35,864 bases of DNA. Origin: Falsigemmobacter faecalis (GTDB lineage: Bacteria; Pseudomonadota; Alphaproteobacteria; Rhodobacterales; Rhodobacteraceae). Numbering within the stretch: position 1 is the first letter of the stretch; every line of letters starts with the position of its first letter. The notes beneath the pieces were generated by a model. That model saw only the letters and a list, made by a program, of their open reading frames with translations. It had not been told where the DNA came from and made no database searches. The DNA is taken from the NCBI RefSeq assembly GCF_003863335.1, contig NZ_RRAZ01000035.1, forward strand, positions 1 to 35,864, read 5' to 3'. The translations under genes and the position numbers were made by a program. Shown piece after piece: positions 18,189 through 35,864 of this stretch.

Positions 18189-18269
18189 GGCAGGCGGACG
18201 CGGGCGCCCGCTCTGGGCAGGCCCGCGCTTTCGCGCTAAAGGGGAAGCTGCAGTTTTCAGGTGAGCCCC

Positions 18270-18734
18270 ATGACCCAGATTTTCGCCTATACCGATGGTG
18301 CCTGCTCGGGCAATCCCGGCCCGGGTGGCTGGGGTGTGCTGCTGCTTGCGCGCCGCGATGGCGAAGTGGTCCGGGAGCGCACCCTTCAGGGCGGCGAGCC
18401 TGATACCACCAACAACCGCATGGAGCTGATGGCCGCCATTCAGGCGCTGGAGGCGCTTGGGCGGCCGAGCGAGATCACCGTTGTCACCGATTCCGCCTAT
18501 GTGAAAAACGGTGTGACCGGCTGGATCTTCGGCTGGAAGAAGAACGGCTGGAAGACCGCTGACCGCAAGCCGGTGAAAAACGTCGATCTCTGGCAGGCGC
18601 TGGATGCCGCGCAGGCCCGCCACCAGGTCACCTGGCAGTGGATCAAAGGCCACGCAGGCCATACCGAGAACGAACGCGCCGATGAGCTGGCCCGCGCCGG
18701 CATGGCGCCCTTCAAGCCGGCAAAAACGCCATGA
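18270..18734 (+). CDS. rnhA: Ribonuclease HI
   Basis: A 154-residue enzyme that cuts the RNA of RNA-DNA hybrids. The catalytic carboxylates are visible in [29 protein letters not shown] and ERADELA, and the basic-protrusion segment [16 protein letters not shown] is present. I prefer the ATG at 18270, spaced from AGGTGA, over the in-frame GTG at 18261; this gives the usual 155-residue size. The stop overlaps the start of the next gene by four bases (ATGA), so the two are translationally coupled. Confidence 0.95.
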
Positions 18735-19366: not shown

Positions 19367-19400
19367 GCGCCGCGCAGACGGTGCGGGAAGGACGAGTGGA

Positions 19401-19895
19401 ATGGGTCGTGCCAGGAAAGTGCCCGATGAGGTGGTCTTTGAAGCGGTGTTGACGCTTCTCGATACCCGCGGGGAGAAGGCGGTGACCTTTGCCGCGATTG
19501 CTGAGCGTGCGGGCCTTGCGGCCTCTTCGCTGGCCGAGCGTCATGGCACCGTGACGGCAATGATCGCCGACAGCCGCGAAGCCGCCTGGCAGCGCCTTGA
19601 GGTGCTGACCGACCGCGCGTCGCTGGAAGCCGGTCGTGACGCAAAAGGCGCGGTGCAGTTTCTCAAATACCTGAACGGCGCGGCACTTCCCGCCGCCCGT
19701 GTGCAGCCCGAGCGCGCCGCCCGCTGGCGCGCAAGGGTTGAGGCAGAGATCGCTTTGCGCCTTGGTGGCGGGGCAAAGGGGCGCGATGCCGCGGCGATGC
19801 TGTTTGCGGTCTGGTATGCCCAGACCGCCTGGCCCGGCCCCGAGGTCAGCCGATTGCGCCTGAAGGGCGTTCTGCGACGTCTGGGGCTTGCTTAA
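19401..19895 (+). CDS. Small TetR-like transcriptional regulator
   Basis: A 164-residue protein with an N-terminal helix-turn-helix (about residues 10-55: VFEAVLTLLDTRGEKAVTFAAIAERAGLAASSLAERHGT), as in TetR/AcrR regulators. The C-terminal part is shorter than usual, so ligand binding is uncertain. GGAAGGACG precedes the ATG at 19401. It follows the TRIC gene after 34 bases on the same strand and converges with fahA; the two stop codons share TTAA. The target genes are unknown. Confidence 0.7.
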   Translation: MGRARKVPDEVVFEAVLTLLDTRGEKAVTFAAIAERAGLAASSLAERHGTVTAMIADSREAAWQRLEVLTDRASLEAGRDAKGAVQFLKYLNGAALPAARVQPERAARWRARVEAEIALRLGGGAKGRDAAAMLFAVWYAQTAWPGPEVSRLRLKGVLRRLGLA

Positions 19896-21157
19896 ACCTC
19901 TCTCGCCCAGTCGGGCAGTGGCGGGGCGGGCAGCATTTTGCCACGGCATTCGCCAAAGCCGATGCGGAAGCCCTCGCCGCGCGCATGGCCGCGCAGGATC
20001 ACGCTGTCGCCGTCTTCCAGAAACCCCCGGGTCACGCCGGGGGCAATCTCGAAGGGCTCTTTGCCGCCCTGCGACAGTTCCAGCATCGAGCCATAGCTGC
20101 CCGCATCCGGCCCCGAAATGGTGCCCGAGCCGATCAGATCGCCGACAGAGGTCGGCGCGCCGCTGATCGCCTGATGGGTAATCTGCTGGGCGGAGGCGTA
20201 GTAAAGATGCTGGCTGTTGGTGCGGGAGACGATCTTCTCCGGATAGCCCTCCGCCTGCAGCGCTACTTCCAGATCGATGTCGTAAAACACCGGCCCCGGC
20301 TCGCGCAGATAGGTCAGCAGCGGCTGAGGGCGCTCCGGCGCGGGGCGGCGGAAGTTCTCCAGCGCGGCCTTCATCACGATCCAGGGGCTGATGGTGGTGG
20401 CCGTGGCCTTGGCGGTGAAGGGGCCCATGGGATTGGCCTCCCAGGCCTGAAAATCCCGCGCCGACCAGTCGTTCAGCAGCACATAGCCAAAGATCATCTC
20501 ATCGGCCTGCGCCACCGAGACCGGGCCTTCGGCAGGCTGACCGACCACCGCGCCGAGTTCCAGCTCAAAGTCAAAGCGCCGCGTGGCACTCAGCACCGAG
20601 CGGTCCTGGCCTGAGGGTTTGATCTGGCCCCTGGGCCGCCGGATCCCGGTGCCTGAAACGATCACAGACGAGGCGCGGCCATTATAGGCCAGCGGCATCT
20701 GCGCCCAGTTCGGCGTCAGCATCGGGGTTTTGCCTTTGAACATCCGGCTGACATTCTCGGCATGATAGCGGCCCGAATAGAAATCCGTCAGCTCCCCCAC
20801 GAGGAAGGGCAGATGCATCCGCGCCGAGGCCTGCGGCACCAGCATAGAGCGCACCTGCTCGCGCACGGGCGCGTCTTCGGTCAGAAATCCCAGCAGCAGA
20901 ATGCGAAACCGCGTCCAGGCCGCCGGACCCAGTTCCATCAGCGGGTTCCAGTAGGGCGCGTCAAAGATCGGCGATTCCGCCAGCTTCAGAAGGCCCGCGG
21001 CCTCAAGCGCTGTGATATCAAGGATCTGGTCGCCAATCGCCACACCGCAGCGCAGCCCGGTTGCCGGAGTGGAGAAGACGCCGCAGGGCAGATTGTTCAG
21101 CGGAAAGTCAGTCTCCGCAGTATTGGCGCTTGCTACCCAGGACCGCATCAACGGCAT
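19892..21157 (-). CDS. fahA: Fumarylacetoacetase
   Basis: A 421-residue enzyme of the FAH family that splits fumarylacetoacetate to fumarate and acetoacetate, the last step of tyrosine/homogentisate breakdown. Family landmarks include DFYSGRYHAENV, SSVIVSGTGIRRPRGQ, FDFELELGAVVG (metal-ligand Glu pair), LLNDWSARDFQAWE, and GTISGPDAGSYGSMLEL. The start at 21157 is fixed by GGGAGGAG just upstream. No homogentisate dioxygenase or isomerase gene is next to it, so the pathway is scattered. The roughly 300 bases upstream (21158-21453) hold no gene I can support. Confidence 0.95.
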   Translation of the reverse strand: MPLMRSWVASANTAETDFPLNNLPCGVFSTPATGLRCGVAIGDQILDITALEAAGLLKLAESPIFDAPYWNPLMELGPAAWTRFRILLLGFLTEDAPVREQVRSMLVPQASARMHLPFLVGELTDFYSGRYHAENVSRMFKGKTPMLTPNWAQMPLAYNGRASSVIVSGTGIRRPRGQIKPSGQDRSVLSATRRFDFELELGAVVGQPAEGPVSVAQADEMIFGYVLLNDWSARDFQAWEANPMGPFTAKATATTISPWIVMKAALENFRRPAPERPQPLLTYLREPGPVFYDIDLEVALQAEGYPEKIVSRTNSQHLYYASAQQITHQAISGAPTSVGDLIGSGTISGPDAGSYGSMLELSQGGKEPFEIAPGVTRGFLEDGDSVILRGHARGEGFRIGFGECRGKMLPAPPLPDWAREV

Positions 21158-21453
21158 GGTTTCTCCTCCCTGTTGTGCGGGTGTCAGCATGTCGGCCCCT
21201 CTCGTCCATGGCAAGGGGGCGTCGGCGGGATTGAGGGAATTGTGATCCTGCGGGCAGGCAAGTGGCCCCCCCCCGCTGTCCCCTGAACGGGCCGGTGCCG
21301 GAGCTGCACTGCCGCGCCCGCGCCGGTGGTGCGGATGAACCGGCGGGTCGTCCGCAACAGCGCTGCCCTGCGCCCCAGACCCTGGTGGCGCAACCTGAGA
21401 GCGCAGATGTGCGGAGGCACCTGATTTTGGATCGCGGGACCGAAAGGCCCGCC

Positions 21454-22332
21454 TCAGTCGCGGCCGGCCACGTCTTTGTGGATGATCAGGTCGACCTGCG
21501 GATAGGCCTGCCGGATCGCGCGGCGCAGGCCTGCACCGATGTCATGGGCCTCATAAAGCGGCAGCTGGCCATCGAGCTCAATATGAAGCTGCGCAAAGAT
21601 CTGGCTGCCCGAGGTGCGGGTCTTCAGGTCATGCCAGGAGATCACCCCGGGCCAGCTGTCGGCAATCGCGCTGATCCCGGCGATGATCTCAGGATCGGCG
21701 CGGCGGTCCATCAGCGCATCCCAGGCCCCGCGGCCAATCCCGACAGCGCCCTTCAGAAGGACCAGCGCTGCCAGAACCGCGATCACCGCATCGAGCTGCC
21801 AGATCCCCCAGAGCTTTGAGGCGATCAGCGCCAGAATGGAGCCTGCGGCGGGCAGAAGATCGGCCATATAGTGCAGCCGGTCTGCGGCAATGACCCGGTT
21901 GCCGGTCTGCCGCGCCACATAGCCCTGCCACCAGACCAGCGCCAGGGTGATCGCCATGCTGAGCGCCATGGCCAGAATGCCCCAGCCTTCGGCGGCCAGC
22001 TGCGGCGGCTCTTCGGCCTGAAAGCGCAGCACCGCGCTCCAGGTCAGGCCGATGGCAGACAGGATCAGCACCAGGGCCTGAAACAGCGCCGTCAGATCTT
22101 CGACCGAGGTATGGCCAAAGGCGTGATCCTCATCCGGCGGGCGCGCGGCGTAAAAGATCGCGGTGATCGCGCCAAGGCTCATCAGCAGATCAAGGCCGGA
22201 ATCGACCAGCGAGGCCGCGATCGACAGCGAGTCGGTCAAAAGCAGCGCGGCGATCTTGATGAGGATCAGCACTGTGGCTGCCAGGACGGACGCCCGGGCG
22301 GCCCGCAGGTTCAGTTGGTGATGCTCAGTCAT
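21454..22332 (-). CDS. Cation diffusion facilitator (FieF/ZitB-like) metal exporter
   Basis: A 292-residue inner-membrane antiporter that exports divalent metals such as zinc or iron. There are six hydrophobic helices and a C-terminal cytoplasmic domain. The transport site has Asp44 and Asp48 (SLVDSGLDLLMS) in helix 2 and His154 and Asp158 (RLHYMADLL) in helix 5, the DD-HD set of FieF-type proteins. EDHAFGHTSVEDL is the intracellular-loop signature. The cytoplasmic domain keeps metal-site residues (HDLKTR, HIELDG). It lies 41 bases behind the SH3 gene on the same strand, a possible two-gene unit. Confidence 0.92.
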   Translation of the reverse strand: MTEHHQLNLRAARASVLAATVLILIKIAALLLTDSLSIAASLVDSGLDLLMSLGAITAIFYAARPPDEDHAFGHTSVEDLTALFQALVLILSAIGLTWSAVLRFQAEEPPQLAAEGWGILAMALSMAITLALVWWQGYVARQTGNRVIAADRLHYMADLLPAAGSILALIASKLWGIWQLDAVIAVLAALVLLKGAVGIGRGAWDALMDRRADPEIIAGISAIADSWPGVISWHDLKTRTSGSQIFAQLHIELDGQLPLYEAHDIGAGLRRAIRQAYPQVDLIIHKDVAGRD

Positions 22333-22373
22333 GGCGGGACACCTTTGGCCGTCAGTGGCTCAGGCAGGGCGGA

Positions 22374-22985
22374 TTAGTCGAAAACCTCGCCCGGCTCCAC
22401 CCCCCATATGTCGGACTTTTTGACCCAGCCCCGGATGCCCTCGGCTGAGATGCGGCACCATTCGGGGGCGCATTGCTGCAATCGCACGACCGCGCCCTGT
22501 TGTGCGCGGGCCGTGAGGCTGCCATGGGTGCCTGCGGCGTCATAAATATCCGCCATTTCGGCCATGATCATCGCTGAGCGGTTGTTCGACAGCAGCGCGA
22601 AATGCATCCAGCCGCCCGCGCCCTCGCTGTCCTCAACCCGGCGCCAGTTTTCATATTCTGCGGTGACTTTCAGCGGCAGGCCCTGGCGCTGGTAGATCCA
22701 GTCGACGCGGTGATCCGAGCCGGGTCCGCGCCGCGCCCGGGCTTCGGCGCCTTTCAGCGAGACATAGCGCGGCAGCGCCCGGCGGGTCACACAACCGATG
22801 CCGGGCGGACAGTCTTTTGCCCCCGAACGGGCGGTGGGCAGCGGGGCGGCGGGCCCCTCTCCGGCGGTGCCGCTGGTGCTGTCGCCCTCACCGGCAGGCG
22901 CTTCCTGGCTCAGTGCCGCGCGGGGGGGCAGCAGGCTCAGGGTCGTGAGAGCGGCCAGGGTCAGCACAATCAGGATCAGCCGCAT
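22374..22985 (-). CDS. Exported SH3-domain protein
   Basis: A 203-residue protein with a signal peptide (to about residue 26), a low-complexity Gly/Ala/Pro stretch, a cysteine pair (DCPPGIGC), and two bacterial SH3-like units. The first is in LPRYVSLKGAEARARRGP with the EYENWRRVEDSEGAGGWMH strand set; the second is near the end (CAPEWCRISAEGIRGWVKKSD). Such proteins are common in alphaproteobacteria and are thought to bind cell-wall or envelope partners; no precise role is known. It diverges from the dehydrogenase gene, with about 160 bases shared upstream. Confidence 0.85.
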   Translation of the reverse strand: MRLILIVLTLAALTTLSLLPPRAALSQEAPAGEGDSTSGTAGEGPAAPLPTARSGAKDCPPGIGCVTRRALPRYVSLKGAEARARRGPGSDHRVDWIYQRQGLPLKVTAEYENWRRVEDSEGAGGWMHFALLSNNRSAMIMAEMADIYDAAGTHGSLTARAQQGAVVRLQQCAPEWCRISAEGIRGWVKKSDIWGVEPGEVFD

Positions 22986-23147
22986 TCTTATATCTGTCCA
23001 CAGGGGCCCTGGGGCCCGGAGAGTGAAAACGGGGCGCGGTCTTTTCGCCGCCGCATCCGGCCTGCCGCGCGGCAGAGCTTGTCTGTCGTCCCGGCATTTG
23101 CCACTTTGCCAAAGAAGCGGGCGGTTTGGAAGTGGAGGGACCGGGCA

Positions 23148-24134
23148 ATGGCGGGCAAAAAGCTGAATGTGGTGGTGACACGGCGCTTGCCGGAGGCGGT
23201 AGAGACCCGCATGAGCGAACTCTTCAACGTCCGGTTGCGTGAGGGCGACGCGGCCATGAGCCGCGAAGAGCTGGCTGCTGCGCTGCGCGAGGCGGATGTG
23301 CTGGTGCCCTGCGTGGCGGACCGCATTGACGCGGCCCTACTGGCCCATGCCGGCCCGCAGCTGCGGCTGATTGCGAACTATGGCGCAGGGGTGGATCATA
23401 TCGACGTGGCCACGGCGCGGCAGCGCGGGATTGTGGTCTCGCATACGCCGGGGGTTCTGTCGGAAGATACGGCTGATATGACCCTGGCGCTGATCCTCGG
23501 GGTGCTGCGCCGCCTGCCGGAGGGGTTGCAGGATATGGCCTCGGGCAACTGGCAGGGCTGGTCGCCGATGGCCCATCTGGGGCGGCGGATCTCGGGGCTG
23601 CGGCTGGGGATCCTTGGCATGGGGCAGGTCGGTCTGGCGGTGGCGCGGCGCGCGCGGGCCTTTGGGATGCAGATCCATTACCACAACCGCCGCCGCCTGC
23701 GCCCGGAGGTGGAGGGCGCGGTTGAGGCGACTTACTGGGAGAGCCTCGATCAGATGCTGGCGCGGATGGATGTGATTTCAGTGAACTGCCCGCATACGCC
23801 CTCGACCTTTCATCTGCTCAATGCGCGGCGGCTGAAGCTGCTGAAGCCCTCGGCCGTGATCGTGAACACCTCGCGCGGGGAGGTGATGGATGAGAACGCG
23901 CTTTTGCGCGGGCTGAAGGCCGGAGAGATCGCCGGGGCCGGGCTTGATGTCTATGAGCATGGCCATGAGATCACGCCGGGGTTGCGCGATCTGTCGCAGG
24001 TGGTGCTGCTGCCGCATATGGGATCGGCCACGCTGGAGGGCCGGGTGGAGATGGGCGAGAAGGTGATCCTGAATATCAAGACCTTTGCCGATGGCCACCG
24101 GCCGCCGGACCGCGTTATCCCGGGGATGCTTTAA
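23148..24134 (+). CDS. D-2-hydroxyacid dehydrogenase (glyoxylate reductase-like)
   Basis: A 328-residue NAD(P)-dependent dehydrogenase. The Rossmann motif GMGQVG is at 157-162, followed by the cofactor end HNRRRL, whose arginines suggest NADPH. Catalytic residues are Arg243 (NTSRGEV), Glu270 (LDVYEHG) and His290 (LPHMGSAT). YGAGVDHIDVATARQRGI and HTPGVLSEDTADMTLALIL are typical of glyoxylate/hydroxypyruvate reductases and D-glycerate dehydrogenases. GGAGGGA lies about 8 bases before the ATG at 23148, which excludes the longer open frame back to 22602. The substrate is not fixed by sequence. Confidence 0.88.
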   Translation: MAGKKLNVVVTRRLPEAVETRMSELFNVRLREGDAAMSREELAAALREADVLVPCVADRIDAALLAHAGPQLRLIANYGAGVDHIDVATARQRGIVVSHTPGVLSEDTADMTLALILGVLRRLPEGLQDMASGNWQGWSPMAHLGRRISGLRLGILGMGQVGLAVARRARAFGMQIHYHNRRRLRPEVEGAVEATYWESLDQMLARMDVISVNCPHTPSTFHLLNARRLKLLKPSAVIVNTSRGEVMDENALLRGLKAGEIAGAGLDVYEHGHEITPGLRDLSQVVLLPHMGSATLEGRVEMGEKVILNIKTFADGHRPPDRVIPGML

Positions 24135-24167
24135 GCGCGGAGCCTGCGCAAAAATTCCCGCGCCCTC

Positions 24168-24195
24168 TTGAATTGCGCGGGTTTCCCGGTAGTTT
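24168..24195 (+). promoter_or_regulatory. Candidate promoter of dnaN
   Basis: TTGAAT (24168-24173) and TAGTTT (24190-24195) with a 16-bp spacer, followed by a hairpin in the leader. It is a sequence match only. Confidence 0.35.
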
Positions 24196-24203
24196 GCTCC
24201 TCC

Positions 24204-24225
24204 CGGCAAATGAGGGCATTTGCCG
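24204..24225 (+). repeat. Hairpin in the dnaN leader
   Basis: Perfect 9-bp arms CGGCAAATG and CATTTGCCG with an AGGG loop, ending 21 bases before the dnaN ATG. It has no T run, so it is not a terminator; it may shape the mRNA 5' end or be a protein site. Confidence 0.6.
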
Positions 24226-24246
24226 TGGCAGGAACAGGGGGTTCGG

Positions 24247-25365
24247 ATGAGATTCAGCATCGAGCGTGCGACGCTTCTGAAAGCGGTGGCTCAGGCACAG
24301 TCGGTGGTGGAACGCCGCAACACCATCCCGATCCTTGCGAACGTGCTGGTGGAAGCGGCGGATGCGGGCGTGTCGTTCCGCGCCACCGATCTGGATATTG
24401 AAGTGGTCGATAAGGCGGAGGCCCAGGTGGAGCGTCCGGGCGCGACCACGGTTTCGGCGGTTATGCTGCATGAGATCGTGCGCAAGCTGCCCGATGGCGC
24501 GCTGGTCACGCTGACCGATGATGCGGTCTCGGGGCGGTTGCAGATCCAGGCGGGGCGCTCAAGCTTTAGTCTGGCGACGCTGCCGCGGGAAGATTTCCCG
24601 GTCATGGCCAGCTCGGAATATATGACGAGCTTCCGCGCACCGGCCTCGGTGCTGCGCCGTCTCTTTGAGAAGGCGAAATTCGCCATCTCGACGGAAGAGA
24701 CCCGCTATTATCTGAACGGTGTTTATATGCACACCGCCCAGGGCGAAGAGGGTCCGGCGCTGCGCTGTGTGGCGACCGATGGTCACCGCCTTGCGCGGAT
24801 TGACGCGCCGCTGCCCGAAGGGGCTGCGGGCATGCCCGGGGTGATCGTGCCGCGCAAGACCGTCAATGAGCTGCGCAAGCTTCTGGATGAGGGGGAGGCG
24901 GAGATTGAGGTTTCGGTCTCGGAGACCAAGGTGCGGTTCTCGAATGCCAGCCTGACGCTGACCTCGAAGGTGATCGACGGCACTTTCCCGGACTACAGCC
25001 GCGTGATCCCGACCGGGAACACCCGCCGTCTGGAAGTCGATGCCCAGGCCTTTGCGAAAGCGGTGGACCGGGTGGCGACGGTGTCCTCTGAGCGCTCGCG
25101 CGCGGTGAAGCTGGCGATTGAGGAGGACCGTCTGGTTCTTTCGGTCAATGCGCCGGATTCGGGCGCAGCCGAGGAAGAGCTGATCGTGGCCTATGCCGAT
25201 GAGCGGCTGGAGATTGGCTTTAACGCCAAATATCTGCTGGAGATCGCCGGTCAGGTGGATCGTGAGAATGCGGTCTTTCTGTTCAACTCTTCCGGCGATC
25301 CGACGCTGATGCGCGAGGGCAATGACACCTCGGCGGTCTATGTCGTTATGCCGATGCGCGTATAA
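24247..25365 (+). CDS. dnaN: DNA polymerase III sliding clamp (beta subunit)
   Basis: A 372-residue protein with three clamp domains and the familiar start MRFSIERATLLKAVAQAQSVVERRNTIPIL. RLARIDAPLP near the middle and the end MREGNDTSAVYVVMPMRV are typical. The end forms the partner-binding cleft near Met-Pro-Met-Arg. Only the ATG at 24247 gives this start; an upstream in-frame ATG at 24220 lies in the leader hairpin. It is followed by recF with 82 bases between. dnaA, often the 5' neighbour, is not in the window. Confidence 0.97.
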   Translation: MRFSIERATLLKAVAQAQSVVERRNTIPILANVLVEAADAGVSFRATDLDIEVVDKAEAQVERPGATTVSAVMLHEIVRKLPDGALVTLTDDAVSGRLQIQAGRSSFSLATLPREDFPVMASSEYMTSFRAPASVLRRLFEKAKFAISTEETRYYLNGVYMHTAQGEEGPALRCVATDGHRLARIDAPLPEGAAGMPGVIVPRKTVNELRKLLDEGEAEIEVSVSETKVRFSNASLTLTSKVIDGTFPDYSRVIPTGNTRRLEVDAQAFAKAVDRVATVSSERSRAVKLAIEEDRLVLSVNAPDSGAAEEELIVAYADERLEIGFNAKYLLEIAGQVDRENAVFLFNSSGDPTLMREGNDTSAVYVVMPMRV

Positions 25366-25376
25366 CGGGCCTGAGG

Positions 25377-25411
25377 CCGGGGGCGCTGCCCCCGGACCCC
25401 CGGAGTATTTT
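25377..25411. repeat. Rhodobacterales-type G+C palindromic intergenic repeat
   Basis: CCGGGGGC-GCT-GCCCCCGG forms a perfect 8-bp hairpin, followed by ACCCCCGGAGTATTTT. I recognise this GCT-centred palindrome with the CGGAGTATTT tail as a motif often seen between genes in Rhodobacterales genomes. It lies between dnaN and recF, where a short U tail might let it act as a weak terminator. Confidence 0.6.
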
Positions 25412-25447
25412 GAAAAAGCCAAAGTCAGATCGCGGAGCTGAGCGGCC

Positions 25448-26488
25448 ATGCTGAATTCGCTGCGCCTTGCGATGTTTCGCAGCCACCGCGCTTTGCGGCT
25501 GGAGTTTGATGGCCGTCCGGTGGCCATCCGCGGCCCGAACGGGGCCGGAAAAACCAATATTCTTGAGGCGATCTCGCTGCTTTCACCAGGACGCGGGCTT
25601 CGTGGCGCGCTTTCTGGTGAGATCGCGCAGCGCAGCGGCGCGGGCGGCTGGAAGGTTGCGGCGGAAATTGCCGGGCATGAGGTGGAGACCTGGGGCGAGG
25701 GCGCGGGGCGGCTGGTGCGGCTGGATGGGAAATCTGCCACCCAGGCTGCGCTGGGCGCGCTGGTGCCGATGGTCTGGCTGGTGCCTGCGATGGACCGGCT
25801 GTGGATTGAAGCGCCGGAGGGGCGGCGGCGGTTTCTGGACCGGCTGACGCTTTCGTTTGAGCCGGGGCATGCGGCGGCCTCGCTGACTTATGAGCGGGCG
25901 ATGCGGGAGAGAAACCGGCTGTTGCGCGATGGGGTCAGGGATCCGGGCTGGTATGGCGTGATTGAGGCGCGGATGGCGGAGGCGGGGGCGCGGCTCCATC
26001 AGCACCGCAGCGCCACCGTGGCGCGGCTGGTCGCGGCGCAGATCGAGGGGGCCTTTCCGGCCGCGGATCTGAGCCTTGATCCGGGGCCGGGGACTGAGGA
26101 TCTGGCGGCGGCGCTGGCGGCGGGGCGGGCGCGGGATCTGGCGGCGGGGCGCAGCCTCTCGGGGCCGCATCGCGCGGATCTGGGGGCGTGCTGGCGGGCC
26201 AAGGAGATGCCGGCGGCCATGTGCTCAACCGGGGAGCAGAAACTGCTGCTGATCGGGCTTGTGCTGGCCAATGCGCGGGCAGTTGCGGAGCTGCGCGGTC
26301 GGGCGCCGGTGCTTTTGCTGGATGAGGTGGCGGCGCATCTTGATCCGGATCGGCGGGCTGCGCTTTATGATGCGCTGAGTGCGGCGGGGGCGCAGGCCTT
26401 TCTGACCGGGACAGAGGATGCCCTGTTTGAGGGCTTCGGAGAGCGGGCGCAGGTGCTGCGTCTCGATGGCAATGGCGCGGTGATCTGA
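25448..26488 (+). CDS. recF: DNA replication and repair protein RecF
   Basis: A 346-residue SMC-like ATPase that helps load RecA at single-strand gaps. Walker A GPNGAGKT is at residues 29-36, the ABC-type signature STGEQKLLLIGLVLANA near 260, and Walker B VLLLDEVAAHLD near 288. It is slightly shorter than the 360-370 residues common elsewhere, but all motifs are present. The GGAG before the ATG at 25448 is usable. Gene order dnaN-recF-x-gyrB is the usual replication cluster apart from the exporter gene that follows. Confidence 0.95.
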   Translation: MLNSLRLAMFRSHRALRLEFDGRPVAIRGPNGAGKTNILEAISLLSPGRGLRGALSGEIAQRSGAGGWKVAAEIAGHEVETWGEGAGRLVRLDGKSATQAALGALVPMVWLVPAMDRLWIEAPEGRRRFLDRLTLSFEPGHAAASLTYERAMRERNRLLRDGVRDPGWYGVIEARMAEAGARLHQHRSATVARLVAAQIEGAFPAADLSLDPGPGTEDLAAALAAGRARDLAAGRSLSGPHRADLGACWRAKEMPAAMCSTGEQKLLLIGLVLANARAVAELRGRAPVLLLDEVAAHLDPDRRAALYDALSAAGAQAFLTGTEDALFEGFGERAQVLRLDGNGAVI

Positions 26489-26504
26489 TGCGCCGGGGGA
26501 TAAG

Positions 26505-27125
26505 ATGAGCCTTACGCTGCAGCAGTTGGGATTTTTCGCGCTGGCCATGGCCGGGCTTTGGGCGGTGCCGGGGCCGGTCTGGGTGGCGCTGGTGGCACGG
26601 GCGCTCTCGGGCGGGTTTCGCGGTGCGGTGCCGCTGGCGCTGGGTGTGGCGATCGGGGATCTGGGCTGGGTGCTGCTGGCGCTTCTGGGCATGGCCTGGG
26701 TGTTGTCGGTTTATGGCGATCTGCTGGGGGTGCTGCGCTGGCTGGCGGCGCTGGTCTTTCTGGTCATGGGGGTGCTTTTGCTGCGCTCAAAGGCGGCGGC
26801 GCCGGGGGCGGACAGCCGGCTGACGCGGCCGGGGTTCTGGCCCGGGCTGGCTGTGGGGCTGGCGGCGGTGATCGGCAACCCCAAGGCGATCCTGTTTTAC
26901 ATGGGCTTTTTGCCGGGGTTCTTTGATCTGGGCGCGCTGACCGGCGCGGATATCCTTGCGATCCTTGTTGTGGCGGCGGCGGTTCCGATGATCGGCAATC
27001 TGGCTTTGATCTTCGGGCTGGAGAAGGCGCGGGCGCTTTTGCAAAGCGAGCGTGCGCGGCTGCGGCTGAACCGGGGCTCGGGGGCGCTGCTGATCCTTGT
27101 GGGCCTGGCCATTCCCTTTGTCTGA
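26505..27125 (+). CDS. LysE/RhtB-family exporter
   Basis: A 206-residue membrane protein with about six hydrophobic helices and the family start (AVPGPVWVALVARALSGGFRGAVPLALGVAIGD), followed by GNPKAILFYMGFLPGF in the middle. The family exports amino acids such as homoserine, threonine or lysine; the substrate here is unknown. It begins 17 bases after recF and lies before gyrB, an insertion into the recF-gyrB order. Confidence 0.88.
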   Translation: MSLTLQQLGFFALAMAGLWAVPGPVWVALVARALSGGFRGAVPLALGVAIGDLGWVLLALLGMAWVLSVYGDLLGVLRWLAALVFLVMGVLLLRSKAAAPGADSRLTRPGFWPGLAVGLAAVIGNPKAILFYMGFLPGFFDLGALTGADILAILVVAAAVPMIGNLALIFGLEKARALLQSERARLRLNRGSGALLILVGLAIPFV

Positions 27126-27156
27126 AAGGGGGATTTCCGCGAAAAGACAGGTCTGA

Positions 27157-29661
<2,505 letters not shown>

Positions 29662-29666
29662 GGGCT

Positions 29667-29729
29667 TGTAGGACTGCGCATAATGCTTCGTTTGCGCATA
29701 AGTTTTCGCTCGAAGCGCATAAGATTGCG
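29667..29729 (+). repeat. Transposon end with three TnsB-site-like repeats
   Basis: TGTAGGACT is followed by three 15-bp direct repeats: GCGCATAATGCTTCG (29676-29690), GCGCATAAGTTTTCG (29694-29708) and GCGCATAAGATTGCG (29715-29729). The first repeat starts 9 bases after the first base of TGT, exactly as the first ACAATAAAG site does in the right end of Tn7. These should be TnsB-binding sites. Confidence 0.7.
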
Positions 29730-29750
29730 CGTTTGAAGAACAAAGACCGA

Positions 29751-29782
29751 AAAGCCGCCCTGAAACTTCAGGGCGGCTTTTT
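29751..29782 (+). terminator. Terminator after gyrB, inside the element end
   Basis: Perfect 14-bp arms AAAGCCGCCCTGAA and TTCAGGGCGGCTTT with an AC centre, then a T run. It serves gyrB transcripts. It lies internal to the end repeats, as the hairpin terminator of the Tn7 right end does. Confidence 0.92.
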
Positions 29783-29811
29783 GCTGAGCCGGTAAGGTTA
29801 GGGACGGTACT

Positions 29812-29845
29812 GAGCGCCAGCCTACGTAGACGGAGGCTGGCGCTC
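29812..29845. repeat. Perfect 12-bp inverted repeat
   Basis: Arms GAGCGCCAGCCT (29812-29823) and AGGCTGGCGCTC (29834-29845) enclose ACGTAGACGG. There is no T run. Two smaller self-complementary stretches follow to about 29875 (GCAC...GTGC and AGCCAGGCT). The whole may be a structured RNA or a protein-binding site; its role is unknown. Confidence 0.6.
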
Positions 29846-30081
29846 TCGCACTGCGGGTGCGTAGCCAGGCTCAGCTGTTAAGCCCACTGATCTATGCCAT
29901 ATGAGCGCCTCTACTGCATGTCCTGGCACGATCCGCCCAACCGAAGTCGCGTCATATGGCTAAATTCACGAAAAAGTGATCATTGGAGATTGGTCACCTT
30001 CGACCGAAATGTTTTGTACAAGATCAATTAAGTCATTGAATCTGGATTGAATTGTAAATTCAAAAAAAATCACGTTTTAAC

Positions 30082-30097
30082 ATTCTGCATGCAGAAT
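30082..30097. promoter_or_regulatory. Palindrome upstream of tnsA, possible operator
   Basis: ATTCTGCATGCAGAAT is a perfect 16-bp palindrome. With one bulged C it extends by TTTTAA on the left and TTAAAA on the right. It is centred about 138 bp before tnsA within very A+T-rich DNA (about 29960-30180). Such a site could bind a dimeric regulator or TnsAB. No clear -35/-10 pair could be fixed. Confidence 0.45.
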
Positions 30098-30227
30098 TTA
30101 AAAACCTTCCGTGAATTTTGAATCAAACCAAATTTTCCTTTTGCGTGAATCCGCAATCGATTCAAACCTAAGCGCGGTTTTGATTTATTGCCCTTGAGGT
30201 GGTCGTAAAAGAGATTAAGTAGCCCGC

Positions 30228-30935
30228 ATGAAAAGACATCTTAATGCGTCGCCGGTGGCGCGGTCTGTTTATGACCGCGGCATGAAGAAGAAATTGACCG
30301 TCGTTTCCGGGCGGGGAGTGCACGGATACTGCGCGACCGAGAGTAATCTTGAAGCAGCCGCGATTGCGGTATTTAGCCTTGATCCGGATGTAATCCGTAT
30401 CGAACCCCAGCCTTGCGTTTTCGATATGGTGTCTCTGTCCGAATACGAAAATCACGAAGCCTATCATGCCGCTACAAGAGACAGGCAACTGGCGAAACGC
30501 TACACTCCGGATTTTCGCCTGTCTTTTGAAGGCGGTGACCAAGTTTTGGTGGAAATCAAACACAGTCGCCTCATTACTAAAGACGCGTCAATTCTGAGCT
30601 ACCCTGAAAGATTGGCGGGCTTGGGTATTAAGCTTTGTATTTTCTCCGAGGAAGATATTAATCCTGATTTGTCCTATAATGCAAAGCTTCTGAGAAGTGT
30701 CGCAAGGTATAAAAACAATTTTATACCATTTAATAATGCCCCACTTAATTTGCGGACTGGGTCAGCGCTATTCTCAGAATATTGCGACGCAGGTTATTCG
30801 AGTGGAGAAGTCTTTTCATGGATTGTCTCAGGTGATCTCAAGATAAATCTGAGCAAAGCGCGGATTGGTCGTTGCTCTAATCTTTGCCCCTCATTTGGAA
30901 ATAAAGATCATCTGAGGGTGCTTCGCTATGATTGA
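30228..30935 (+). CDS. tnsA: Tn7-like transposase endonuclease subunit TnsA
   Basis: A 235-residue protein of the TnsA family, which cuts the 5' ends of the element so that it moves by cut-and-paste together with TnsB. The start MKRHLNASPVARSV is typical. The restriction-endonuclease-like core shows ESNLEAAAI (Glu42 candidate), YTPDFRL (Asp95) and VEIKHS (Glu109, Lys111). The C-terminal half should contact TnsC. The ribosome-binding site is weak; an ATG at 30282 would also leave the core intact. The stop overlaps tnsB by 8 bases. It is more A+T-rich than the host genes. The active residues look complete, so replicative-only transposition is not expected. Confidence 0.88.
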   Translation: MKRHLNASPVARSVYDRGMKKKLTVVSGRGVHGYCATESNLEAAAIAVFSLDPDVIRIEPQPCVFDMVSLSEYENHEAYHAATRDRQLAKRYTPDFRLSFEGGDQVLVEIKHSRLITKDASILSYPERLAGLGIKLCIFSEEDINPDLSYNAKLLRSVARYKNNFIPFNNAPLNLRTGSALFSEYCDAGYSSGEVFSWIVSGDLKINLSKARIGRCSNLCPSFGNKDHLRVLRYD

Positions 30936-32892
30936 TGTTGTTTCGAATTATATCGGGAGGCAATTAGTATATGATGGCGTCATTTTTACCGTAACCGCAC
31001 GAACGCAGGACGAGAGTGGATTCATAATTCAAGACGTTGAAGGAAACGGCGCACAAATCTCTAACGAAGAACTGCACGTCCTGCTTGCTCAGGCACAGTC
31101 CGACATATCGCGAAGCCGCCAGTATTTTCAGACTAAAGCGGGACAGCAGGACCAGGAGGTCCGCCTTCAAATCCTGCGTGCGGAGGCCGAACTCAATGCG
31201 CAGGGTTATCTGTCTTGGACGCAACGACATGCCCTGCTGATCGAAAAGTTCCAAGGCTTGAGGGACCGACTCGGCCGCCCAATATCAGTGCCTTCTGTTC
31301 GAGCACTTCAATCGTGGAAAGGTGCTTTTCGTGCAGGCGGGCGTCAAGCTCTTGCTGATGCGCGTCGGCGCTCTGGCAACCGTACTCGACGGCATGATCC
31401 GATATTCGAAGCGATTGTAATCCAGCAGCTGGAGGAACGCTTTGTGAACTCTGATCGCGTGACGGCCAAGGAACTGCACCGGATCAGCTATGCACTTTAT
31501 CAAACTTGGGCCGAAGAGAACAAAGTCACAATGCAGGAATGTGGCGAACGTGTTGTGCGAAGTATTATTTCAAGCCTTCCACACCGTGACCTCATAAAAC
31601 GTCGTATTGGGTGCGATCAGGCCACGAAGGAACTCTTGCGGGCACGCCACTTCGAAATGGTTCAGGCGCCATTTGAACGCGTCGAGATCGATTCTACCCA
31701 GGCTGATATCTTCGTAGTCATCGACAGTGAGGGAAACGTCGCGCGCCCACATATCTGCGCAGCCATCGATTGCGCCACAGGCTTGATCGTAGGGATGTCC
31801 CTCAGCCTTACGCCACCTAATGCAGAACTGACCGCTCGAACGCTGAAGGAAATGATGGTCCCCCACGGCGACGCATTTTTTGATGCATTTGGTATCAGTA
31901 ACAGGCTTGAAGCAATCGGGCGCCCCCTGGTCACGATCTCCGACCAGGGCTCGGAAAATTCGGGCCCCCTCATCGAAAGCATTGTTGAGCACTGCCTTTA
32001 TGAGTTCCGCAAGAACATCCCCAAGAAGCCCGAGAAAAAGCCGTTTATCGAGCGTCTGTTCGGCGTGATGAACGAGTTCATCCACTCGCTGCCAGGCGCT
32101 ACCGAGACCCGTTTAATGAAGAACCGTACGCGGATCGAAAAGGCGACGGCAGAGGCCAGACTAACCTTTGAGCAATTTGAATCTAAGCTCCAGCGCTGGC
32201 GATATGATGTCTATGCGCAGATGCCGCGAAAGCGCGTTACGAGCCATCTGCGTACGAACGAGAGTCCAGCGGCAAGCTGGCGGCGATTGCTGAAAGAGTG
32301 CCTTGTTCCTGAACCGCCGAGCGAGAGCGAAATCCGGCAGATGTTCTTTGCGGGTAGAACCGAGCGCAAGTTGCAGCGGTACGGTGTAGAATATCAACGT
32401 ATTCAATATTTTGGCGAAGCTGGCCTGCTGCTGGACCAGTATGGTCCAGGTGCCAAGCTCGAAATCAGATACGACCCAACCGACATTAGGATGCTGCTTG
32501 CACGCCATCCGAACGACGATGACTGGGTAGAACTAACCGCGAAGGATCCTGATCTGCCTGCGATCAGCTTTGCAGAGCTGGAGCGTTTGCGCAAAACCCT
32601 TCCCGTCGATGAGATGGAAGCACAGGGGGCTCTGTCGGCACAAATTATTCTGAGAGAAATGACTAAAGACATGCACCGGCCGATGCGCGGCCAACGTACC
32701 AAAGCGCGGCGGGCCGCGCATGCCGCCCAAGACTTTCAACGCGATCAGGAAACAGCTCTTCGATCGAAGGCGTCGCCTCGTGGGGCGAATTCATCCAGAC
32801 AGCCGGAGACTGAAGTCGTTTCGTTGAACGAGCCAGTTTTTGTCGCGTCTCCGTCATCGCCGCCTCCAATTGAACGTAGGAGGAGGTCATAA
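30928..32892 (+). CDS. tnsB: Tn7-like DDE transposase TnsB
   Basis: A 654-residue retroviral-integrase-type transposase that cuts and joins the 3' ends. The N-terminal half (to about 240) should hold the helix-turn-helix domains that bind the end repeats. The rve core shows all three acids: Asp255 (VEIDSTQAD), Asp339 (TISDQGSEN) and Glu375 (KPFIERLFG). A Mu-type beta-barrel region and a basic tail (ERRRRS) follow; the tail is the usual TnsC contact. It overlaps tnsA by 8 bases and shares one base with the tnsC start (TAATG). AGGAGG near its end serves tnsC. No frameshift is seen. Confidence 0.93.
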   Translation: MIDVVSNYIGRQLVYDGVIFTVTARTQDESGFIIQDVEGNGAQISNEELHVLLAQAQSDISRSRQYFQTKAGQQDQEVRLQILRAEAELNAQGYLSWTQRHALLIEKFQGLRDRLGRPISVPSVRALQSWKGAFRAGGRQALADARRRSGNRTRRHDPIFEAIVIQQLEERFVNSDRVTAKELHRISYALYQTWAEENKVTMQECGERVVRSIISSLPHRDLIKRRIGCDQATKELLRARHFEMVQAPFERVEIDSTQADIFVVIDSEGNVARPHICAAIDCATGLIVGMSLSLTPPNAELTARTLKEMMVPHGDAFFDAFGISNRLEAIGRPLVTISDQGSENSGPLIESIVEHCLYEFRKNIPKKPEKKPFIERLFGVMNEFIHSLPGATETRLMKNRTRIEKATAEARLTFEQFESKLQRWRYDVYAQMPRKRVTSHLRTNESPAASWRRLLKECLVPEPPSESEIRQMFFAGRTERKLQRYGVEYQRIQYFGEAGLLLDQYGPGAKLEIRYDPTDIRMLLARHPNDDDWVELTAKDPDLPAISFAELERLRKTLPVDEMEAQGALSAQIILREMTKDMHRPMRGQRTKARRAAHAAQDFQRDQETALRSKASPRGANSSRQPETEVVSLNEPVFVASPSSPPPIERRRRS

Positions 32893-33872
32893 TGCCAATT
32901 CTTATGTCCGAAGCGCTGGATGTCCGGATCCGGCATCGCATCTACAGCGAAATCCTGATGGCTCTGCGTGATCAGTTGTCCCGCGCCGCCAACCTGAATG
33001 GAGCGATCATCCCTCTGCTGGGTCCCACTCGTGTTGGAAAGTCTGATTTGCTCTTGGACCTTGTGGACGAAGACACTGGTTTTGCGCCCAGAGCTTCCGC
33101 ATCGTTGCTCAGGCGTCAGCCCATCGTGCTGGGAGCAGTACCGCCCAAACCGAATGAACGGGAGCTGTATCGTGCAATGCTTCTGGCGATGGGCTTTGAC
33201 TGCGGCAAGAAGGAGCGCACCTCAATCGTGCGTGACCGTGTTATCGCTGCAATCAGTCGCGAAGGTGTCGCTGTGCTGGTGCTCGATGAATGCAATCATT
33301 GCGTTGAGCCAGGTGCAAACCTGTCGGCTCGTTCGGCAGCTGATCATTTTAAAACCATTGTAGATGCGACAGGTATTACCTTGGTTTTGGCTGGTCTTCC
33401 GAACTTTCAACGGATCGTGGATGGTAATGAGCAGTTCCGAGACAGGGCCATGCGCAGCCTGATTTTCGAGCCATATTCGTGGTCCTTGGAAAGGGATCGT
33501 GAGGGGTTTGTCGCGGCGATGAACGGCATCTTTGCGCTGTTGCGTGAAGCCTCCGTGGAAACGGACTTTGCGGATCAGGACATTGCGCGCCGGCTGTTCG
33601 CAGTCTGCGGTGGGCGCGTTGGCTTGGCGTTGCGTATCCTGAAAGCTGTGGGCGCAGGAAAGCCTGTCAGCAAACTGACCATGCAAGAGATCGCGGCTGC
33701 GGCGGCAGCCTGCTGTCAGGATCGCCATATGGTATCAGCTGCCTTTTCCTCCCCACCGCCAGGGGATGACGTGCTTTCACGATCTTACGTGAACGTCATG
33801 CAGGAAGCTGGTCTGTCGGTGCTTCCCAATAATGTTCATGAATATGCCGCCGTTCGCGGTCTGAGGGCGTGA
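32892..33872 (+). CDS. tnsC: Tn7-like AAA+ regulator TnsC
   Basis: A 326-residue AAA+ ATPase that links the target selector to the transposase and gives target immunity. Walker A GPTRVGKS is at 44-51, Walker B VLVLDEC at 128-134, with a sensor-like stretch TLVLAGLPN near 180. It is short compared with Tn7 TnsC (555 residues) and closer in size to TniB-type ATPases, so it lacks the long extra termini. The start at 32892 is fixed by AGGAGG. tniQ begins 1 base after its stop. Confidence 0.9.
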   Translation: MPILMSEALDVRIRHRIYSEILMALRDQLSRAANLNGAIIPLLGPTRVGKSDLLLDLVDEDTGFAPRASASLLRRQPIVLGAVPPKPNERELYRAMLLAMGFDCGKKERTSIVRDRVIAAISREGVAVLVLDECNHCVEPGANLSARSAADHFKTIVDATGITLVLAGLPNFQRIVDGNEQFRDRAMRSLIFEPYSWSLERDREGFVAAMNGIFALLREASVETDFADQDIARRLFAVCGGRVGLALRILKAVGAGKPVSKLTMQEIAAAAAACCQDRHMVSAAFSSPPPGDDVLSRSYVNVMQEAGLSVLPNNVHEYAAVRGLRA

Positions 33873-33873
33873 G

Positions 33874-35610
33874 ATGCAAGGGGCTAAGCCACACCCGAAT
33901 GAAAGTCTTAGCGGTTACTTGCGAAGGTGTGCTCACGACGAGCTCTACGAAACGGTAGCCCCCTTCTATGGAAGGTTGGAGGTCCGCTATGGACGCCCAC
34001 TTCTTGGTCAACTTGCCACGGTAGCGACAAAGCTGCAGCTGGAGGGCTCAGTGCTTGAGCAAATTACGCCTGTCAGCGGGGCTGAGAAGGGACAGTTTCC
34101 ACTTCAGTTTGAGCGGTCCTCTTGTGATCCGTTTTGCCCGTATTGCCTGCGAGAGAACGGGTTTTGGGACATCAGCTGGCGCCATTGCTATGTCAGCGCC
34201 TGCCCGCGTCACGGAGCGAGGTTGGTGGATCGATGTGGCAGGTGTGAAACCCAAATTACGCCAGCTACCGGCGGCTTTCTTGCTTGTGAATGCGGGGCTC
34301 CGTTCGCTGAGTTCCCGGCTTCTCAAGCATCTGAGGCCGAAGTGGCAATCTCGGCAAGGCTCATTGAAAGCCGCTGGGGAACGGACTCACAACCCCCAGC
34401 GAGCTTTGATCGCTTCATCCATTTCCTGCACGGGTCCGTACAGTCATCGCGGCTTGATAAGCCGGGGAAGGCCAGGCTGCCCCGAAGTGCAGAGGACGCG
34501 GCATCCGTCGCAAAGGCCGTATGGCCGATGCTGGAGAACCCGCAGGAAGCTTTCGCACAGCTCATTAGTGCGAAACTTCTTGAGAGTGCTGATAGAGATA
34601 TAACCCTGCCTATGAAACTTGGGGGGTGGTACCAGTCGCTATCAAGGTTTCGAGGGCCTTGGTACGACCCGTTCTGGGCTGTCGTACGCTCATTGGGTGC
34701 AGGGCAGAAAGAAGGCCCCTGCATTCAGGAGAATGATCGGCTTACCGCAAAGGAAGCGGCGGCAATCCTCGCCGTGAGAGCTGATCGAATTGTTGAGGCG
34801 GTACGCAGCGGTAAGATCGGGGGCGAGATCAAAGAATCTGCTCTCGGACATCGCCGAACTTGGGTTGATCGGGCTGAAAGTGAAAACATAGCAACCGAGA
34901 GCGCCCGATACTGGGAGGCCAAGACTGCAGCTGAATTTCTCGGGGTCTCGAAGAAGCAGTTTGCATTGTTGGGGGACGCAGGGTTCGTTGCCCCTGTTGA
35001 TCGCAACTCTTTGCCGCCTCTGACGGACGGCATTTTTAAAGCATCTGAGCTGCAGAGGCTGGCCGAAACTATCCGAGTAGGTGCGCGCAGCCCTGCTGGT
35101 GGCGGGACGACAATCCGATTTGCAGACATAAACCAACGCCGCACCAATGAACTTCAGGCTCTCAAGCGAGTGTTCAACGCAATCAAAGCTGGGAAGCTTC
35201 GGGCCGTTTCAGCAGCTTCTGATGATGCTTTGGGAGCTTTTTCTTTTTCTGAAGATGATCTTCGGGCGCTCATTGACAGCCCTGAGCAGAACAAATTTTA
35301 TACCGCGCTGCAGGTTTCTCAAATTTGCGGATGGAAGCACGAGTGCGTCACCCATTGGTGCCGTGAAGATCTTCTTGAAAGTCGAAAATCCAAAACCGGT
35401 GGTGCAGATAGTTATGAAATCAGCCCGGAGGCTCTGGCGGCCTTTCAATCGATGTATGTGGTGCTTTCTGATGTGGCGAAGCTGACAGGGACATCTTCCC
35501 GCAGACTTATCTCTGTATGCGATGCAAGGGGCGTAAAGGCGTTCGCGAAAAGGTGTGGAGGGGCAACTTCCCGTTGCTACTTGGTAAAAGCGGCTGATTT
35601 ATTTGGCTGA
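33874..35610 (+). CDS. tniQ: TniQ/TnsD-like target-site selector
   Basis: A 578-residue protein with the TniQ N-terminal domain (PHPNESLSGYLRRCAHDE, about 6-23). A cysteine/histidine set follows (CPYC 88-91, WRHC 102-105, CPRH 110-113, CGRC 121-124, CEC 138-140) that should bind zinc. The C-terminal 300 residues hold at least three, perhaps four, excisionase/MerR-like helix-turn-helix segments: LTAKEAAAILAVRADRI (290-306), EAKTAAEFLGVSKKQFALL (348-366), TALQVSQICGWKHECVTHWC (477-496) and LSDVAKLTGTSSRRLISVC (531-549). Such size and layout fit a TnsD-type protein that reads one fixed attachment site. The neighbouring gyrB end is the obvious candidate. Confidence 0.88.
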   Translation: MQGAKPHPNESLSGYLRRCAHDELYETVAPFYGRLEVRYGRPLLGQLATVATKLQLEGSVLEQITPVSGAEKGQFPLQFERSSCDPFCPYCLRENGFWDISWRHCYVSACPRHGARLVDRCGRCETQITPATGGFLACECGAPFAEFPASQASEAEVAISARLIESRWGTDSQPPASFDRFIHFLHGSVQSSRLDKPGKARLPRSAEDAASVAKAVWPMLENPQEAFAQLISAKLLESADRDITLPMKLGGWYQSLSRFRGPWYDPFWAVVRSLGAGQKEGPCIQENDRLTAKEAAAILAVRADRIVEAVRSGKIGGEIKESALGHRRTWVDRAESENIATESARYWEAKTAAEFLGVSKKQFALLGDAGFVAPVDRNSLPPLTDGIFKASELQRLAETIRVGARSPAGGGTTIRFADINQRRTNELQALKRVFNAIKAGKLRAVSAASDDALGAFSFSEDDLRALIDSPEQNKFYTALQVSQICGWKHECVTHWCREDLLESRKSKTGGADSYEISPEALAAFQSMYVVLSDVAKLTGTSSRRLISVCDARGVKAFAKRCGGATSRCYLVKAADLFG

Positions 35611-35864
35611 CCGATGCTACAGGCACGCGACTGTCTCAGACGCGCCCTGCACCAGATTTACTCGGGTGACGCCAGCTCTGTAATGCTTGACGATGACATA
35701 AGTTGTGCGTGATGTGAGGTCGACAAGGGAGGTTTATCGAACGTTTTGAAAAGGGCTGCCTTAGGCTCTTAGTCGCCAGTCATGACCCGTGAAATAGTCT
35801 CGATGCTTGAGATGTTCTTGTGACCTGCCACGGGATTTTTCCTCCATCTGCGATTAGAGTCCGG
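35611..35864. other. Downstream of tniQ; possible IS end
   Basis: No gene is seen in these 254 bases. At 35697-35704 CATAAGTT repeats part of the end-repeat core but in a single degenerate copy. From 35821 the sequence TGACCTGCCACGGG with a distant AGAGTCCGG looks like the terminal inverted repeat of an IS3-family element, which would then lie mostly beyond the window; this is only pattern memory. The real far end of the transposon is not visible. Confidence 0.35.

What the first reader, a model, noticed from the sequence alone, without database searches (positions are those of the whole stretch)
29662..35864. Tn7-like transposon apparently using the 3' end of gyrB as attachment site
Seen: tnsA-tnsB-tnsC-tniQ with intact catalytic motifs, reading away from gyrB, beginning with a TGT terminus only 5 bases after the gyrB stop codon. 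Known: Tn7 inserts just downstream of glmS with its tnsA-side end next to the gene, so the conserved coding end is read without harming it. Inference: here the conserved gyrB 3' end is used in the same way. I do not know whether a gyrB-linked Tn7 family has been described.
Basis: partly seen in the sequence, partly recalled or inferred. Interest (0 to 1): 0.85.

Follow-up and report, generated by a model that had tools for sequence, protein, structure and literature searches.

The report
Tn7-like transposons homing to gyrB
A family of bacterial transposons related to Tn7 inserts itself, usually exactly five bases past the stop codon, behind the essential gyrase gene gyrB in many Rhodobacterales, a landing site for this kind of transposon that we did not find described.

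Summary
In detail: gyrB ends at 29661, GGGCT follows, and a TGT end with three GCGCATAA units begins at 29667, then tnsA-tnsB-tnsC-tniQ reading away. The inference also holds. Twelve genomes were found by similarity to this TniQ (E 5e-16 or better; two are fragments). All twelve have a TGTAGG end exactly 5 bp after the gyrB stop; none of six checked genomes with only weak TniQ similarity do. In a survey of 107 gyrB genes, one per genus, exact TGTAGG lies at +5 in 12, at +6 and +7 once each, and at no other offset from 0 to 39. Both ends were found for 12 elements; 9 have perfect 5-bp target duplications. Where the two end types can be told apart, the one with close-packed repeats faces gyrB. 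Two deeply diverged TniQ lineages use the site within one genus, and five genomes hold stacked elements. So the family homes to the gyrB 3' end as Tn7 homes to glmS. Not shown: the window copy's far end (absent from its assembly) and direct TniQ-gyrB binding. The nearest precedent is parE, target of some type I-F3 CASTs. No gyrB report turned up in the open-access library searched.

The parts
27160..29661 (+). gyrB, the attachment gene; its intact 3' coding end is the presumed target sequence (the true start may be a later codon)
   Evidence: (TIGR01059 gyrB, 970 bits against a cut-off of 882)
29662..29666 (+). GGGCT, 5 bp between the gyrB stop and the transposon end; presumed target duplication (its partner copy is not in the assembly)
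   Evidence: (no CCTACAGGGCT in the genome); 9 related elements have a perfect 5-bp duplication at this position
29667..29735 (+). gyrB-side transposon end: TGTAGG plus three GCGCATAA units (29676, 29694, 29715), presumed TnsB sites
29748..29783 (+). hairpin followed by a T run, presumed intrinsic terminator just inside the end
   Evidence: -28.8 kcal/mol, z -7.2; sequence
30228..30935 (+). tnsA, endonuclease subunit, 235 aa
30928..32892 (+). tnsB, DDE transposase, 654 aa
32892..33872 (+). tnsC, AAA+ regulator, 326 aa
33874..35610 (+). tniQ (TnsD-like), 578 aa: N-terminal TniQ zinc-finger core plus a C-terminal part with helix-turn-helix modules; presumed gyrB selector
35611..35864 (.). end of contig; remainder and far end of the element not found in the assembly

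Best explanation
The window holds the gyrB-proximal part of a Tn7-like cut-and-paste transposon (tnsA, tnsB, tnsC, tniQ) from a Rhodobacterales family whose attachment site is the 3' end of gyrB. Inferred mechanism: the long TniQ (TnsD-like) binds the conserved last codons of gyrB through its C-terminal helix-turn-helix part and recruits TnsC and then TnsA+TnsB. These insert the element at a fixed distance past the stop codon, in one orientation, duplicating 5 bp. gyrB stays intact. Because the recognised sequence is upstream of the insertion point, the site can be used again, giving stacked elements. Shown by sequence: site, spacing, duplication, end orientation in most copies, stacking, horizontal spread. 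Inferred: that TniQ is the protein that reads gyrB, and that the window's copy is active.
For: 12 of 12 genomes found by TniQ similarity at E 5e-16 or better have TGTAGG at +5 (own, G192, G358, G073, G298; seven more; gyrB ends read). In 10 of the 12, tns genes or fragments lie downstream of gyrB on the same contig (for G781 and G782 this is inferred from coordinates and matching duplications); in G780 and G783 they are on separate short contigs. Of ten genomes with weak TniQ hits, six had gyrB read and 0 of 6 have the end. Survey: 12 of 107 at +5, one each at +6 and +7, none at other offsets 0-39. Perfect 5-bp duplications in 9 elements: G192 GGCCT, G358 GGCGA, G002 CGGGG, G778 TTCAG, G781 GCGCG, G782 CCAAA, G779 TTTTT, G789 TTGGT, G043 CGGTT. 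The duplicated bases carry 0.15-0.37 bit each, while most first and second codon positions upstream are invariant (26 occupied sites). 11 of 14 near ends have a repeat unit at 27-28 or 48-49 and 0 of 14 has one at 60-120; 7 of 11 far ends have one at 64-108. G192 and G791 against G789: TniQ 36% identical, GyrB 88-89%, G789 grouping with Roseovarius. Empty sites in congeners G394, G234, G395.
Against: The window copy has no visible far end, and none with GGGCT was found. Of the 12 survey positives, five (G013, G038, G048, G056, G067) show only the near end in the 19.5-40 kb fetched, and three contigs end too soon to tell. Some ends lie at +6 or +7 (L127, L129; G065, G007). G073 has its tns genes inverted and a 6-bp spacer AACCCC between stacked elements. 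G791 matches 4 of 5 duplicated bases and G777's first element has a 4-bp spacer. For G358, G002 and G779 the repeat score did not separate the two end types. No empty site could be aligned base by base across a filled one. TniQ binding to gyrB is untested. The C-terminal modules do not match each other significantly by profile comparison, and the fold search could not be run.
Confidence: 0.9

Rival explanations
1. The elements home to gyrB, but the reader of the site is not TniQ: a further element-encoded protein, a host factor or a guide RNA marks gyrB and TniQ is only an adaptor, as in CASTs or TnsF-using Tn6022.
For: A small conserved gene follows tniQ in 3 elements (L084, L085, G791). TniQ works as an adaptor in known systems (PMC10293859 and PMC11406308, passages). 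The closest solved TniQ chains are, as far as I recall, adaptors of I-F3 CASTs.
Against: That small gene was found in none of the other loci compared, nor in the 254 bases after the window's tniQ. The TniQs are 578-616 aa, above the 400 aa that PMC10293859, speaking of loci with two such proteins, takes to suggest direct selection, and 8 of 9 have HTH_17 matches at E 0.1 or better. Cas genes were not searched for systematically.
Confidence: 0.08
2. One ancient insertion behind gyrB inherited vertically and lost in most lineages, with no repeated targeting.
For: All elements sit at nearly the same place, and TniQ and GyrB similarity correlate weakly (rho 0.36 over 55 pairs).
Against: Different element lineages occupy the site within one genus. 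Stacked elements share the same duplication (G358, G789). Three same-genus relatives of the window are empty. Perfect short duplications persist.
Confidence: 0.02
3. General attraction to the dnaN-recF-gyrB region, or to downstream terminators or hairpins, without sequence reading.
For: gyrB lies beside dnaN and recF in the window.
Against: Base-exact spacing from the gyrB stop; 0 of 13 parE or ParE-like ends carry TGTAGG; variable sequence just after the stop.
Confidence: 0.01

Closest known systems
Tn7 (TnsABC+D, glmS attachment site)
   Same: TnsA, TnsB, TnsC and TniQ/TnsD; 5-bp duplication; controlled orientation; insertion past the 3' end of a conserved gene with the recognised coding sequence left intact (Tn7 facts: passages of PMC11406308)
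   Different: gyrB instead of glmS; cargo often between the gyrB-side end and tnsA; no TnsE recognised in the window; no chain that I recognise as Tn7's own TnsB among the 6 solved TnsB relatives listed
Type I-F3 CAST with parE-homing TniQ (Tn7017)
   Same: a Tn7-like element whose selector homes to a type II topoisomerase B-subunit gene (passages; that parE is a paralogue of gyrB is recalled); closest solved TnsB and TniQ chains are, by recalled names, from I-F3 systems
   Different: target is gyrB; 0 of 13 parE or ParE-like ends read here carry TGTAGG; one TniQ and no cas gene recognised in the window
Tn6022 (comM) and Tn6230 (yhiN)
   Same: Tn7-like elements homing to a conserved chromosomal gene (passages)
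   Different: Tn6022 inactivates comM through TniQ plus TnsF/Orf3; here the gene is kept intact and no further selector gene is visible in the window

Membership tests
Tn7-like transposons | TnsA, TnsB (DDE), TnsC (AAA+) and TniQ encoded together | tested here: met
Tn7-like transposons | TGT...ACA termini with arrays of repeated TnsB-like sites, different at the two ends | tested here: met
   near end in the window; both ends in relatives; far end of the window copy not seen
Tn7-like transposons | 5-bp target site duplication | tested here: met
   9 perfect of 12 elements with both ends found; not testable for the window copy
Tn7-like transposons | one orientation of insertion relative to the target | tested here: met
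   0 of 14 near ends has a far-type unit; 11 of 14 have close-packed units, 3 not separable; tns genes inverted within the G073 element
Tn7-like transposons | TniQ/TnsD-dependent targeted transposition | not testable with these tools
   needs an assay
glmS-homing Tn7 (TnsD) | insertion downstream of glmS | tested here: not met
   the site is gyrB
parE-homing I-F3 CAST | insertion adjacent to parE | tested here: not met
   0 of 13 parE or ParE-like ends with TGTAGG; one (L111, G780) has TGTAGT at +5 followed by sequence unlike the element ends
CRISPR-associated transposon | cas genes and guide array in the element | tested here: inconclusive
   none among the window genes annotated; the rest of the window's element is not assembled and relatives' cargo was annotated only in part

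The most novel reading that the evidence does not exclude
A whole selector lineage has specialised on gyrB: TniQ carries a reading head of four or five tandem excisionase-type helix-turn-helix modules that follow the gyrB coding sequence by its invariant first and second codon positions and ignore wobble bases. The gyrB 3' end thereby becomes a family-wide integration hub where unrelated lineages, and tns-less derivatives moved in trans, stack in arrays.
Probability: 0.3. Interest if true: 0.78.

Novelty: new variant of a known kind. Interest (0 to 1): 0.62.

Why it matters
It adds an essential, conserved gene to the short list of safe sites used by Tn7-like transposons, beside parE, which is already known. 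The site is occupied by an exact end in 12 of 107 genera surveyed, so gyrB downstream regions look like a frequent cargo site in this family; proteins of two elements match defence-system models. It offers a new set of selectors for site-directed insertion, a natural experiment on how a protein might read a coding sequence despite codon drift, and a case where stacking raises the question of target immunity.

Tried and rejected
Far end of the window's own element: exact repeat pairs elsewhere in the genome, TGTAGGACTGCGCATAA with up to 3 mismatches (five other hits, judged unlike element ends by eye), host sequence downstream of the G396 remnant traced to contig C32 (homology stops before any end), CCTACAGGGCT (none). 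Left open.

Base-level empty site for G192 within its genus: in the other matching genomes the joined flanks aligned only to the gyrB stop or a few bases past it; right flanks of five elements found no match downstream of the gyrB genes then held.

gyrB ends without tns genes were considered as a refutation, but G002 and G043 have both ends and perfect duplications. tns absence in G002 and G013 rests on tblastn with the window's proteins, in G043, G038, G048, G056 and G067 on profiles.

Plasmid carriage: only distant TniQ (23-31%, 5 records). Viral contigs: none confirmed. Class-wide: 8 of 385, only the window's own strong; the other seven match part of the N-terminal TniQ core.

Weak-hit genomes: of ten (three, seven), gyrB was read in six; G522 gave only a ParE-like end; G500, G658 and G716 were not examined.

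VEHLD versus VENLD at the gyrB end: 0 of 12 occupied against 11 of 95 others, too weak to use. Module-against-module profile comparison in TniQ: not significant. Structural search: not possible.

Literature: searches listed nothing that I recognised as a gyrB attachment site for a Tn7-like element. Most listed papers were seen only as title and start of abstract, and one search listed 20 of 27. Passages were read of PMC10293859, PMC12452197 (gyrB only as a phylogenetic marker), PMC8649781, PMC11406308, PMC10201428, PMC12719977 and PMC3478194. Most subscription papers and all preprints are outside that library, and supplementary tables could not be read; so absence from print is not shown.
Full report
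What is there. The window is an entire contig (C31, 35,864 bases) of a 4.24-Mb genome in 103 contigs. gyrB ends with TGA at 29659-29661; GGGCT follows; at 29667 begins TGTAGGACTGCGCATAATGCTTCGTTTGCGCATAAGTTTTCGCTCGAAGCGCATAAG, with GCGCATAA units at 9, 27 and 48 from the end. A hairpin with a T run, presumably an intrinsic terminator, lies just inside (29748-29783). Then come tnsA 30228-30935, tnsB 30928-32892, tnsC 32892-33872 and tniQ 33874-35610, all reading away from gyrB, with domain matches and the expected motifs. The contig stops 254 bases after tniQ.

Is gyrB really the attachment site? I searched by the transposon's own selector, not by gyrB. In the family, 8 of 394 genomes matched TniQ: five at E 4.5e-16 or better (own, G192, G358, G073, G298, the last a fragment) and three weakly. 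The four species looked up are Rhodobacterales. I then read the gyrB ends. All five from the family search and all seven new genomes have TGTAGG exactly 5 bp after the gyrB stop, 12 of 12. In G780 and G783 they are on separate short contigs. Ten genomes had only weak TniQ hits. gyrB was read in six of them (G361, G271, G605, G688, G650; G022): 0 of 6 have the end. G522 gave only a ParE-like end, without it; G500, G658 and G716 were not examined. In the class, 8 of 385 matched, and all but the window's own matched only part of the N-terminal core.

Survey. From 110 genomes drawn evenly from the family, one per genus, I read 107 gyrB ends (G059 and G090 not fetched, G102 without a gyrB match). 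Exact TGTAGG: 12 at +5, one at +6, one at +7, none at any other offset from 0 to 39. Further downstream of the same genes the hexamer occurs 5 times in 32,431 positions. Degenerate ends at +5 or +6 (for example G035, G044, G066, G096, G106) were not counted. Of the 12, two carry tns genes (G000, G073), two are bounded by perfect duplications without detected tns genes (G002 of 6,287 bp; G043 of 14,074 bp), five show only the near end in the 19.5-40 kb fetched (G013, G038, G048, G056, G067), and in three the contig ends too soon (G025, G047, G100). In Pseudooceanicola, 11 gyrB loci held were read: three exact ends at +5, two at +6, two degenerate, four without.

Insertion chemistry. Both ends were found for 12 elements; 9 have perfect 5-bp duplications: G192 GGCCT (27,710 bp), G358 GGCGA (25,138 bp), G002 CGGGG, G778 TTCAG, G781 GCGCG, G782 CCAAA, G779 TTTTT (six T between two stacked ends, so less informative), G789 TTGGT (28,620 bp) and G043 CGGTT. 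The exceptions are G791 (GTGTA/GTGTG), G777's first element (4-bp spacer) and G073's first element (AACCCC). The five duplicated bases are nearly random across 26 occupied sites (0.15-0.37 bit each), while most first and second codon positions of the last 20 gyrB codons are invariant and wobble positions are not. The same holds for 87 unoccupied genes, so this shows where constant sequence is available, not that it is read. The specificity must lie outside the duplicated bases, and the constant sequence beside them is gyrB.

Orientation. By a crude repeat score, 11 of 14 near ends have a unit at 27-28 or 48-49 and none has one between 60 and 120; 7 of 11 far ends have one between 64 and 108. 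For G358, G002 and G779 the score does not separate the ends. So wherever the end types can be told apart, the close-packed end faces gyrB. The tns genes read away from gyrB in the 11 other elements where direction could be read, but their place varies: tnsA starts 561 bp into the window's element and 21.5 kb into G192's. G073 is the one inverted case, with TnsC and TniQ in one reading frame and part of TniQ missing.

Repeated use and spread. Stacks of elements occur in G358, G779, G789, G777 and G073. In G358 and G789 the same 5 bp lies on both sides of the first element and directly before the second, as expected if gyrB is hit again. In Pseudooceanicola, G192 and G791 carry one TniQ lineage and G789 another: 36% identity although the last 150 residues of GyrB are 88-89% identical; G789's TniQ groups with Roseovarius (67%, support 100/98). 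Same-genus relatives of the window (G394, G234, G395) have no end behind gyrB, and G394 and G234 align at 86% from the last bases of gyrB through the next gene. G396, the closest relative, keeps about 19 bases of the near end and then departs into a 512-aa ORF on the other strand that looks like a transposase by eye.

How it most likely works. By analogy with Tn7 (passages of PMC11406308: TnsD reads the glmS 3' coding end; 5-bp duplication; controlled orientation), TniQ binds the gyrB 3' end and recruits TnsC and TnsAB. In support, TniQ is long, with an N-terminal TniQ core and HTH_17 matches in 8 of 9 members at E 0.1 or better. A model of moderate confidence (mean pLDDT 77.9, pTM 0.46, 9 sequences) shows a succession of helix and strand units from about 289 to 577. 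I read these as four or five tandem HTH modules; sequence profiles do not confirm that they resemble each other, and no structural search could be run. Direct binding is inferred.

Place among known systems. TnsB's best solved relatives are a PseTnsAB fusion (E 3.3e-26) and Tn6677 TnsB (9e-23), then others at about 1.5e-13. TnsC's are VchTnsC. TniQ's best are TniQ chains (E 1.5e-12), with a TnsD at E 0.014. From recalled identities of these entries this hints at a place near the I-F3 branch; no tree with those proteins was built. Attachment genes named in passages I read are glmS, comM, yhiN, parE, tRNA genes, guaC, yciA, ffs and rsmJ (PMC11406308, PMC10201428, PMC12719977). parE, targeted by a TniQ of Tn7017-type CASTs, is the closest precedent; 0 of 13 parE or ParE-like ends read here carry TGTAGG, though one (L111, G780) has TGTAGT at +5 followed by unlike sequence. 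The word gyrB does not occur in the texts of PMC10293859 and PMC8649781 (word counts). Ten literature searches listed no gyrB site, within an open-access library, mostly seen as titles and abstract starts.

What stays open. The window's copy lacks a visible far end, so it may be truncated or simply unassembled. Several gyrB genes carry only a solo end. Some ends are at +6 or +7. Direct TniQ-gyrB recognition, activity and immunity need experiments.

Noticed in passing
L084 11790-12209; L085 11790-12206; G791 element 21003-21422: A small gene of 139-140 aa follows tniQ in three elements and was not found in the other loci compared; no Pfam family above its cut-off for the two copies scanned.
   Followed up: partly
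G002 element (L062), 6,287 bp behind gyrB: Element with both ends and a perfect duplication but no tns genes found; ORFs look by eye like glutathione S-transferases, a hydrolase and a HxlR-type regulator: a possible non-autonomous passenger.
   Followed up: partly
G358 element 13976-20812; G192 element 227-2053; G791 element 281-7578: Cargo resembling defence genes: helicase-like and AAA ATPase proteins of G358 and an OLD/AriA-like ATPase of G192 match PADLOC models; a type I restriction-like cluster in G791 is judged by eye only.
   Followed up: partly
L022/L023 (G073), 5,183 bp into the stack: Two elements separated by AACCCC, which holds the inverted form of the gyrB-side GGGGT, with the tns genes inverted: perhaps an inversion between element ends.
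   Followed up: partly
G396:C130 near 137720: Same-genus relative keeps about 19 bases of the transposon end behind gyrB and then departs into a 512-aa ORF that looks like a transposase by eye.
   Followed up: partly
L231 (G035), behind gyrB: Degenerate end TGTAAGG at +5 and a weak tnsB-profile match to a 279-aa ORF (E 1.2e-6) 1.2 kb in: probably a decayed member.
   Followed up: no
window 11867-29661: secY and rpoA lie on the same contig as dnaN, recF, a LysE/RhtB-like transporter gene and gyrB.
   Followed up: no
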